From NCBI RefSeq assembly GCF_017354985.1, contig NZ_CP071501.1, forward strand, positions 1,755,501 to 1,819,500: DNA of 64,000 bases. The letters run 5' to 3'. Made by a program: the position numbers and the translations under genes. This stretch comes from Shewanella cyperi (GTDB lineage: Bacteria; Pseudomonadota; Gammaproteobacteria; Enterobacterales; Shewanellaceae). Every line of letters begins with the position of its first letter. Position 1 is the first letter of the stretch. Below are positions 49,230-55,572 of the stretch, one piece after another. Below the pieces are notes generated by a model, which had not been told where the DNA came from, searched no databases, and saw nothing but the letters and a program-made list of their open reading frames with translations.

Positions 49230-50063
49230 TTATTCGGCAATGCGCAAACCATCGTTGTCTATGCTGAGCTGACCGGCCTTGAACAGGCCTCCAATGCTTT
49301 TCTTGAAAGCTTTTTTACTCATGCCCAGTTCGGCATAGATCACATCGGCATCGGTTTTATCCGTTAACGGCAGGAAGCCGCCGGCTTTGCGCAGCTTGTC
49401 CATGATGAGTTTGGCATGGGAGTCCAACTCTTCACGGTTGCCGCGCTGCAACTGCAGATCCAGTTTGCCATCGTGGCGCACCTGCTTGACATAACCTTGC
49501 ACTTGTTGGCCGAAACGCAGTTTCTTGAACACTTCGTTGTTGTAAAGCACACCCCAGTGAGCCTGGTTGACTATGGCCTTGTAACCGAGATCCGAGGTGC
49601 CGGCGATGATAAGGTCAACCTTTTGACCTGGTTTGTAAAAAGCCGGGGTCTTGTCGAGGAACTTGTCCAGTTTGGCCGAGGCCACAATGCGATCGTCCGC
49701 ATGGTTGATGTGTATATAGACCAGCACTGAGCGGCCTTCTTCCGGCGGGCGTTTTTGTTCGGCGAAGGGCAGCAGCAAATCCTTGTCCAACCCCCAATCG
49801 AGGAAGGCTCCGACCCGACTGATGGAAACCACTTTCAGCAGGGCAAATTCGCCGACCTGAGCCTTGGGGCGGGCTGTGGTGGCTATCAGTTGATCTTCAG
49901 AGTCCAGATACAGGAAAACATCGAGCCAGTCACCGACCTGACAGTCTTTGGGCGTGACCTTGTTGGGTAACAACACCTGACCGTATTGCTCGGCATTGAG
50001 ATAGACACCGAAATTCACCTGTTTTACCACCTGCAGCCTGCAGGTCTTTCCAATCTGGATCAT
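49230..50063 (-). CDS. cvfB: S1-domain RNA-binding protein, CvfB family
   Basis: A protein of 277 residues. It contains S1-like repeats (about 1-65; 66-135; 140-205, with the ISRVGAFLDWGL and YKAIVNQAHWGVLY segments) and a C-terminal winged helix (about 215-277; YAELGMSKKAFKKSIGGLFKAGQL). That is the CvfB/YitL layout. Staphylococcal CvfB binds RNA and affects virulence gene expression; the role in Shewanella is unknown. AAAGAGAG lies before the ATG at 50063. Confidence 0.86.
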   Translation of the reverse strand: MIQIGKTCRLQVVKQVNFGVYLNAEQYGQVLLPNKVTPKDCQVGDWLDVFLYLDSEDQLIATTARPKAQVGEFALLKVVSISRVGAFLDWGLDKDLLLPFAEQKRPPEEGRSVLVYIHINHADDRIVASAKLDKFLDKTPAFYKPGQKVDLIIAGTSDLGYKAIVNQAHWGVLYNNEVFKKLRFGQQVQGYVKQVRHDGKLDLQLQRGNREELDSHAKLIMDKLRKAGGFLPLTDKTDADVIYAELGMSKKAFKKSIGGLFKAGQLSIDNDGLRIAE

Positions 50064-50738
50064 TGCACTCTCTTTATTGGCTGATTCGCATTTTACCGCG
50101 CGGATTATAGAGGAATTTCGGCGCCGCTGCCCAGTTTGTTTGCTCCCGCGCGGCCCGAGGCAAACAATCGCCAAACCGCGGTGGAAAAGCGACTGGGCAC
50201 CCCTGGATTTTTGTATCAAATCTTTGTTTGAAAGTGCAGCTTAACTTGTTGTCTGTAAATGAAAAAAAATGCCGCTGCTGCAACACTGGTCAGACGGGTC
50301 TGTCAGACTGCAACAACAAAGTCACATTCGTGCTTGCATTCTGGAACTTAGCAGGGTTTAATTGCGCCGTTTCCGGGGATTCGCCCCCGGAGAACTCATC
50401 TGATTTATGGGGTTTTCTACGGTTTTATGGTTCACGAGTCATTAACCGTGTAATTGACTGAACGCCATTACACGGGGTTAAGAGGGTTTTAGCTAATGCA
50501 CAACCATGTATTTACGACACATTGCCTTACCTTGGCATCAGCACTGGTTGCCTCACCGGTATGCTTTGACTCGGACGTAAAACACCTCACCCTGATCCGC
50601 ATTAATTCTGGCCGCGAAGAGGCCAATAGTCCCAACTGACCCGTCGCTATTTTTTCGCGGCATTTGGCTACCCGGCATTCTCTGGCAGAGTGACCGGGCG
50701 GGGGGCATTTGAACTTTTACAGCAGAAAAGCGTGACAT
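50064..50738. other. 675-bp leader region of the polyamine cluster
   Basis: No long gene is present on the plus strand. Hairpins are visible: CAGAC-GG-GTCTG near 50291; TCCGGGG / CCCCGGA at 50372-50391; TAACC-GTGTAAT with ATTACAC-GGGGTTA at 50443-50480 (a 12-bp stem with a 2-base bulge); and a CCCGG...CCGGG stem enclosing CTCT-GGC-AGAG near 50671-50697. A 47-residue reading frame lies between. The first 150 bp belong to the cvfB upstream side. Confidence 0.6.
50496..50639 (+). CDS. Candidate 47-residue upstream ORF in the speE leader
   Basis: ATG at 50496 to TGA at 50639. AGAGGG lies 9 bp before the start. The product has a hydrophobic stretch (LTLASALVASPV) and is otherwise not recognised. 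It comes directly after the hairpin at 50443-50480 and before the hairpin in front of speE. It could be a leader peptide, a small protein or chance. Conservation is not known. Confidence 0.35.
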   Translation: MHNHVFTTHCLTLASALVASPVCFDSDVKHLTLIRINSGREEANSPN

Positions 50739-51614
50739 ATGCAAAAGCAACACCTGTATTATGAGACCTTGCATTCCGGCTACGGTCAGTATTTCGAGGT
50801 TGATAAGGTACTGTTCGAGCAGAAAACCGAACAGTGGCACCTGACCATTTTTGAAAACAGTCGCTTTGGACGGGTGATGGCGCTCAATGGCGCCATCCAG
50901 ACCACGGAAAAGGATGAATTTGTCTATCATGAAATGCTGACCCATGTGCCTTTGCTGGCCCACGGCAACGCCAAAAGCGTGTTGATCATTGGCGGCGGCG
51001 ACGGCGGTATGTTGCGTGAGGTGGTTAAACACAGGCAACTTGAGCGCATTACCATGGTCGAAATCGATGCCTCTGTGGTGGACATGTGCAAGAGCTATTT
51101 CCCAGAGCACTCCCAGGGGGCCTATGACGACCCCAGGGTAGAGTTGGTGATAGACAATGCCATGACCTTTGTGGCCGATACAGACAAGAAGTTCGATGTG
51201 ATCATATCCGATTGCACCGATCCGGTGGGGCCGGGAGAAGTCCTCTTCAGCTCCGCCTTTTATCAAGGTTGCAAGCGCTGCCTGAACGATAACGGTATTT
51301 TTGTGGCGCAAAACGGGGTTCCCTTTATGCAGCCCGACGAAATTGCCGATACCGTGCGGCGCATGAGCCCCTATTTGCAGGAGTGTTGGTTCTATATGGC
51401 CGCCGTGCCCACCTATGTGGGAGGCAGCATGGCGTTTGCCTGGGCCACCGACAATCTTGCAGCACGCAGAGTTGATTCTGCGACCCTTGAAGCGCGTTTT
51501 AATGCGGCTGGGATCAGCACTCGTTACTACACGCCGGCTGTACATCAGGCAAGCTTCGCCTTGCCAGCGTTTGTTGAACAGGCGATCCAGTCAGCCATGA
51601 CTGTGACCGCTTAA
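50739..51614 (+). CDS. speE: Spermidine synthase (polyamine aminopropyltransferase)
   Basis: A protein of 291 residues. The AdoMet-binding motif [13 protein letters not shown], the substrate Asp in DCTDPVGPG and the gatekeeper region QNGVPFMQ are typical of SpeE. It transfers an aminopropyl group from decarboxylated AdoMet to putrescine. It is first in the speE-speA-speD-speB cluster and is close in sequence to the E. coli/human type. The ribosome site (AAAGCGTGA) is weak, and the long leader may control translation. Confidence 0.94.
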
Positions 51615-51644: not shown

Positions 51645-53555
<1,911 letters not shown>

Positions 53556-53626: not shown

Positions 53627-54556
53627 ATGTTTTTTGAAGGCTCAGAAAAAAAAATAGAAGTTATAGTCACACCCGGTTGTGGCTCTTTGCGCGAACTCGG
53701 TAAGGCGTTTTGGACCGAAATGGTTGCCAGCGCCAACGCTGAAATCCTGTCCTCCATCAGCAATGAAAAGTGTGATGCGTACCTGCTGAGTGAATCCAGT
53801 CTGTTTGTGTGGCATGACAGGTTCCTGATGCTGACCTGTGGTACCACCACCCTGGCCAATGCCGCACTGCGTTTTATTGAACAGATTGGCAGCGATAACA
53901 TCGCCTTTGCCAGTTATCAGCGCAAAAACGAATACCTGTCCCATCTGCAATCGAGCGCTTTTGCCGATGATTTGGAACGTATTCGCACGCTGTTACCGGG
54001 CAACGCCTATCGTATAGGGCATCTGGACTCCCACCACCATTACATCTACACCAGCAGCAAACCTTTTCAGGCGGCCGCAGACGATGCCACGTCTGAGTTG
54101 TTGATGTATCACATTCGGGGGGAAGCCGCAGATTATCTGCGGGCGGAAAACCAGAGCGCGGCCGAAATCCGCCGTTTGCTGACGCTGGAAGCCATGCTGC
54201 CGGGCTTTGAATTCGATGACTTCCTGTTTGAGCCTTTTGGCTATTCAATCAATGGCGTATGTGGCGAACGCTACATGACCATACACATCACCCCCCAGGA
54301 AAACAGCTCTTACGTGAGCTTCGAAACCAATCTGCCGCTCGAAGGTGAACACAGTCAGCTGTTTGCCCGCCTTTTGGCGATACTCAATCCGGGCAGCTGG
54401 GATGTGATAGGTTTTAATTCCGGGTGTAACACCCAAGGTTTTCCCGAGCATCTGTGTCTGGGGAGCTGTGCTTTGCAAACCGAGCAAGGGTATAATATCG
54501 ATTTCAGTCATTATCAGCAGCTGTGTCACGAAGTGCTGATCCCTGAACCCATGTAA
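53627..54556 (+). CDS. speD: S-adenosylmethionine decarboxylase, eukaryote-like class
   Basis: A pyruvoyl proenzyme of 309 residues. It has the eukaryotic cleavage motif LLSESSLFV (Glu56-Ser57, matching human Glu67-Ser68), the active Cys71 in TCGTT, and the FGYSINGV...YMTIHITP block holding the equivalents of human Ser229 and His243, plus SYVSFETNL. It is not like E. coli SpeD. It yields decarboxylated AdoMet for SpeE. The ribosome site is weak (GTAGAGAAAA), just after a strong hairpin. Class-2 enzymes in bacteria are known but uncommon and probably reflect ancient transfer. Confidence 0.93.
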
Positions 54557-55539: not shown

Positions 55540-55572
55540 TAAAAAGCCAACCATCAAGGTTGGCTTTTTTGT
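55540..55572 (+). terminator. Terminator after the polyamine cluster
   Basis: The stem AAAAGCCAACC / GGTTGGCTTTT with a T run, 23 bp after speB. Confidence 0.87.

What the first reader, a model, noticed from the sequence alone, without database searches (positions are those of the whole stretch)
53627..54556. Human-like AdoMet decarboxylase inside a bacterial polyamine operon
The LSESS cleavage site, TCGTT cysteine and GYSxNG...TIHITP catalytic block are those of eukaryotic SpeD, not the E. coli type, while the neighbours speE, speA and speB are bacterial. A whole arginine-to-spermidine route is in one cluster with a mixed ancestry.
Basis: partly seen in the sequence, partly recalled or inferred. 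Interest (0 to 1): 0.6.

Follow-up and report, generated by a model that had tools for sequence, protein, structure and literature searches.

The report
Eukaryotic-type SAM decarboxylase in Shewanella
This bacterial gene makes spermidine's aminopropyl donor with an enzyme of the animal and plant type instead of the usual bacterial type; that such bacterial copies exist was already published, but most Shewanella keep this enzyme after losing spermidine synthase, which makes its second job testable.

Summary
Window 53627-54556 (+) encodes a 309-aa class 2 (eukaryotic-type) S-adenosylmethionine decarboxylase. Pfam PF01536 scores 203 bits, the model superposes on human AMD1 (TM 0.87, about 30% identity), and every processing and catalytic residue is present. 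It is third in a predicted operon speE-speA-AMD-speB in a Shewanella genome that has no class 1 SpeD. Bacterial class 2 enzymes, acquired from a eukaryotic source, are already published (Li et al. 2019, cited in PMC10407285), so the headline is not new. The eukaryotic donor could not be tested here, because only one eukaryotic sequence could be used. The useful extra is wider context. Of 130 Shewanella genomes, 126 keep this enzyme but only 29 keep a canonical spermidine synthase; nearly all the rest carry a membrane-fused spermidine-synthase-like protein, which in this genome sits in a PspA/DUF350 cluster. The window genome has both partners. Its putrescine pocket matches the human one at E15/D174/T176/E178. 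The D174-T176-E178 motif is kept in 39 of 41 speE-bearing genomes and only 24 of 118 without speE, while catalytic residues never vary. That trend rests on few independent events and is a lead, not a proof.

The parts
53627..54556 (+). class 2 S-adenosylmethionine decarboxylase proenzyme, 309 aa
   Evidence: PF01536 203 bits; human AMD1 2e-35; AlphaFold pLDDT 92.8, TM 0.87 to 1msv/1jl0
53792..53797 (+). codons of E56-S57, predicted self-cleavage site that yields the pyruvoyl group (human E67-S68)
   Evidence: invariant in all class 2 rows aligned
53837..53839 (+). codon of C71 (human catalytic C82)
   Evidence: invariant
54245..54247 (+). codon of S207 (human S229, processing)
   Evidence: invariant
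54284..54286 (+). codon of H220 (human H243, processing)
   Evidence: invariant
53657..53659 (+). codon of E11 (human E15, putrescine ligand)
   Evidence: alignment to human; E15, D174 and T176 listed as putrescine hydrogen-bond residues in PMC3686867
54083..54097 (+). codons of D153-T155-E157 (human D174, T176, E178), putrescine pocket
50739..51614 (+). speE, spermidine synthase
   Evidence: NF002010 395 bits and TIGR00417 350 bits, both above cut-off
51645..53555 (+). speA, biosynthetic arginine decarboxylase
   Evidence: TIGR01273 868 bits
54588..55517 (+). speB, agmatinase
   Evidence: TIGR01230 295 bits, NF002564 469 bits
55541..55569 (+). intrinsic-terminator-like hairpin (12 pairs) after speB, predicted end of the operon, before pdxH
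   Evidence: consensus match only

Best explanation
The gene encodes a working class 2 AdoMet decarboxylase. Inferred from homology: the proenzyme cuts itself between E56 and S57, S57 becomes a pyruvoyl group, and the alpha/beta enzyme decarboxylates S-adenosylmethionine. SpeA and SpeB make putrescine from arginine, and SpeE joins it with the aminopropyl group to give spermidine. Putrescine probably binds the human-like E/D/T/E pocket and stimulates the decarboxylase, matching donor to acceptor. The same donor probably also feeds an unlinked membrane-fused aminopropyltransferase-like protein in a PspA/DUF350 cluster, the role that keeps the enzyme in Shewanella species that lack speE. Shown here: family, predicted fold, residues, gene order, absence of class 1 SpeD, genus-wide distribution. 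Inferred: activity, co-transcription, putrescine activation, second partner.
For: Family and residues. Fold: pLDDT 92.8; best PDB matches are the human proenzymes at TM 0.87, then T. brucei and potato; class 1b T. maritima matches under half the chain. Only AdoMetDC found in the genome. Class 1 and class 2 exclude each other in the order: 74 and 90 of 395 genomes, no shared genome above cut-off, Fisher p 7e-10, not corrected for relatedness. No nspC or OKR_DC_1 hit above cut-off. speA-AMD stay adjacent across the genus. Second partner. Pocket.
Against: Not all pocket positions match human: K80 is L69, F111 is S96 and S113 is Q98, so activation could be weak or absent. TIGR00535 scores 142 bits, below its 233-bit cut-off. 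No activity data. The link to the membrane-fused protein rests on co-occurrence and on the literature, not on adjacency.
Confidence: 0.88

Rival explanations
1. The enzyme serves only spermidine synthesis in this organism; the membrane-fused protein uses another donor or is unrelated.
For: The window operon is complete, and the putrescine pocket is intact as in other speE genomes.
Against: 98 Shewanella genomes keep the enzyme without canonical speE, and 96 of those carry the membrane-fused protein. PMC11237479 links this operon type to polyamines or aminopropylation, citing Li 2019.
Confidence: 0.25
2. Class 2 arose in bacteria and eukaryotes obtained it from there, so the window gene is native rather than imported.
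For: It is nearly universal in the genus and present in several other families of the order. The shortest forms show weak similarity of their C-terminal half to class 1.
Against: It is narrow in bacteria: only the window's own genome among 369 sampled across the class, and 9 of 399 across the phylum. Published phylogeny favours a eukaryotic source. The half-chain profile match is weak.
Confidence: 0.1
3. It has changed substrate, like the class 1 homologues that became arginine or ornithine decarboxylases.
For: Such shifts are widespread among SpeD homologues (PMC10407285).
Against: A speA of the usual arginine decarboxylase family sits in the same operon, no other AdoMetDC exists in a genome with speE, and positions F7, L65, E67 and F223, which bind AdoMet in human (PMC3686867), are conserved.
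Confidence: 0.03

Closest known systems
Bacterial class 2 AdoMetDC (Li et al. 2019, Biochem J, BCJ20190561; not held here, known through PMC10407285 and PMC11237479 and from my own memory of its abstract)
   Same: class 2 enzyme in a bacterium; ascribed to horizontal transfer from a eukaryote; from memory, reported functional, with some in genomes that hold membrane-fused spermidine-synthase-like proteins and DUF350
   Different: I could not read whether Shewanella was included; the window genome also has a complete speE-speA-speB operon
Human AMD1 (PDB 1msv, 1jl0)
   Same: fold, LSESS processing site, C82, S229, H243, putrescine pocket E15/D174/T176/E178/E256
   Different: about 30% identity, shorter (309 versus 334 aa), K80/F111/S113 replaced by L/S/Q
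Class 1b SpeD (T. maritima 1vr7)
   Same: Foldseek aligns about 120 residues of the model to it; class 2 is described as two fused class 1b units (PMC10407285)
   Different: under half the length, no profile match to this protein

Membership tests
class 2 AdoMet decarboxylase (PF01536) | Pfam gathering score | tested here: met
   203 bits against 22.2
class 2 AdoMet decarboxylase (PF01536) | E-S processing site and C82/S229/H243 equivalents | tested here: met
   E56-S57, C71, S207, H220
class 2 AdoMet decarboxylase (PF01536) | two-domain fused fold | tested here: met
   predicted model, TM 0.87 to human proenzyme over the full chain
class 2 AdoMet decarboxylase (PF01536) | self-processing and AdoMet decarboxylation | not testable with these tools
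   needs protein
TIGR00535 (NCBI equivalog) | curated cut-off 233 bits | tested here: not met
   142 bits; homology is clear but this model does not name it
class 1 SpeD (PF02675) | profile match | tested here: not met
   no match in protein or genome
putrescine-activated AdoMetDC | acidic putrescine pocket | tested here: inconclusive
   E15/D174/T176/E178/E256 kept, K80/F111/S113 changed
eukaryote-derived bacterial class 2 clade | nested inside eukaryotes in a tree | not tested
   only human could be added; published claim cited

The most novel reading that the evidence does not exclude
In Shewanella and relatives the class 2 enzyme's putrescine pocket is under selection only while spermidine synthase is its partner. 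Where speE is absent, the enzyme is kept to supply the membrane-fused aminopropyltransferase, and putrescine control is free to decay. The genus would then be a natural experiment separating polyamine-dependent from polyamine-independent use of decarboxylated AdoMet.
Probability: 0.35. Interest if true: 0.55.

Novelty: new member of a known kind. Interest (0 to 1): 0.33.

Why it matters
The bacterial class 2 enzyme is published, so the gene alone is ordinary. The genus-wide pattern matters more: 98 Shewanella genomes keep AdoMet decarboxylase without canonical spermidine synthase, while others, including this one, keep both. That gives matched strains for asking what the membrane-fused aminopropyltransferase makes and whether putrescine control follows the partner enzyme.

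Tried and rejected
Class 1 origin: no PF02675 match. Phage, plasmid or virus carriage: no match. Rooting in eukaryotes: not possible, since only human could be recovered from the PDB search output; T. brucei and potato alignments were not printed. Direct reading of Li et al. 2019: not held. Profile match of class 2 halves to class 1b: weak, hhalign probability 12-16% for the broad set and 62% for the C-half of the short forms, not relied on. Simple speE-pocket causation: weakened, because only 4 independent pairs exist on supported branches (about 2.5 agree, none oppose) and one speE-less Shewanella clade keeps most of the motif. Loss of the pocket through loss of putrescine supply: not supported, since in speE-less Shewanella the pocket is lost mainly where speB is intact at this locus (52 of 58).

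Full report
Observation. The ORF at 53627-54556 (+) is real and begins MFFEGSEKK, as most of its relatives do. Pfam PF01536 scores 203 bits. The best solved relatives are human AMD1 (2e-35), T. brucei and potato AdoMetDC. Neighbouring speE, speA and speB reach their bacterial equivalog cut-offs. The genes are 30, 71 and 31 bases apart, and a 12-pair terminator-like hairpin follows speB at 55541, before pdxH. I read this as one operon, speE-speA-AMD-speB.

Identity. An AlphaFold model from 30 bacterial relatives reaches pLDDT 92.8 and pTM 0.91. Its closest PDB entries are the human proenzymes at TM 0.87; class 1b SpeD aligns over only about 120 residues. The residues E67, S68, C82, S229 and H243 of human AMD1 are invariant in all 125 Shewanella sequences and in the relatives from other families (the human row is the S68A crystal construct, and S68 is the native residue). 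Class 1 SpeD is absent from the genome, and NspC and OKR_DC_1 have no match above cut-off. The enzyme is therefore the only recognisable source of decarboxylated AdoMet here.

Distribution. PF01536 occurs in 126 of 130 Shewanella genomes, 74 of 395 in the order, 9 of 399 in the phylum and only the window's own genome among 369 drawn across the class. Endozoicomonas carries a similar operon. In the order, class 1 is above its cut-off in 90 genomes, none of which has class 2. The two sub-threshold overlaps, G583 and G641, are the class 2 gene itself, hit in its C-terminal half.

What is known. PMC10407285 states that some bacteria encode class 2 AdoMetDC acquired from a eukaryotic source, citing Li et al. 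2019. That paper is not held. From memory, its abstract reports bacterial class 2 enzymes as functional and describes genomes with membrane-fused spermidine-synthase-like proteins and DUF350. PMC11237479 describes operons of a membrane-fused spermidine-synthase-like gene with PspA, DUF350 and DUF4178, and suggests polyamine sensing or aminopropylation of other substrates. The headline finding is thus not new.

What the search adds. Canonical speE passes its cut-off in only 29 of 130 Shewanella genomes. Of the 101 others, 97 have a spermidine-synthase-like match at about E 1e-28 or better, in open frames of roughly 570-620 aa where listed. Of the 126 genomes with the class 2 gene, 98 lack canonical speE and 96 of those have such a match. 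The window genome has both. Its fused gene (L111:8246-9982, NF002956 608 bits) sits in a cluster with DUF350, DUF2170, PspA and a weak DUF4178 match, with an ion-channel gene beyond. speB is missing or broken at this locus in many speE-less species, yet speA-AMD remain together. So this enzyme's value to most Shewanella is unlikely to be spermidine made by SpeE.

Putrescine pocket. PMC3686867 lists human E15, D174 and T176 as hydrogen-bonding putrescine. The window has all three plus E178 and E256, but K80, F111 and S113 are replaced. The D174-T176-E178 motif is intact in 39 of 41 genomes with speE and 24 of 118 without. Among 94 columns conserved in speE-bearing genomes, D174 and T176 are the two least retained elsewhere. 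A random set of three columns is as low as E15/D174/T176 with p 0.002, while catalytic columns are the most retained. By parsimony E15 is lost 10 times and T176 8 times on speE-less branches, and neither on speE branches, but speE-less branch length is four times larger and D174 itself is less clear (5 to 1). One of the two exceptions, G1165, is a 1060-contig assembly with 5% contamination.

Limits. speE status changes only six times on the tree, so the pocket association cannot reach significance by independent pairs. The column test shares one tree and so does not correct for a single clade-level event. One speE-less Shewanella clade keeps the motif in most members. speE presence was scored from a profile cut-off. 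Some outgroup speE states come from adjacency only, and some short-form (f11) genomes were assigned without being searched. I treat the association as a lead.

Verdict. The enzyme is a genuine class 2 AdoMetDC in a complete spermidine operon, of a kind already described in bacteria. Interest comes mainly from the genus-wide uncoupling of AdoMetDC from spermidine synthase.

Noticed in passing
L111:5155-10881 (window genome C1 about 881154-886880): Unlinked cluster: ion channel, DUF4178-like, PspA, DUF2170, membrane-fused spermidine-synthase-like protein (NF002956), DUF350; resembles an operon type described in PMC11237479.
   Followed up: partly
L064:6161-6976 and other f11 genomes: Short (about 270 aa) class 2 homologues lacking the putrescine motif and, in the eight genomes tested, canonical speE; in L064 it lies after a CRP-like regulator and an ion-channel-like ORF (by eye). 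Two f11 members give weak class 1 (PF02675) matches in their C-terminal half.
   Followed up: partly
L035, L044, L011, L051, L136, L139, L161, L167, L211: speB fragments beside intact speA-AMD in speE-less Shewanella: the operon appears to be decaying around the decarboxylase.
   Followed up: partly
L010, L041, L053 and similar: A second layout in other families: class 2 gene followed by a different speE (about 38% identity), with divergent speB and speA, also in one genome outside the class (G1040), suggesting a second spread of a cluster.
   Followed up: no
G1149 and G1185: Two Shewanella genomes keep the class 2 enzyme with neither canonical speE nor a clear membrane-fused spermidine-synthase-like gene.
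   Followed up: no
window 49230-50219 (-): CvfB-like S1-domain protein divergent from the operon.
   Followed up: no
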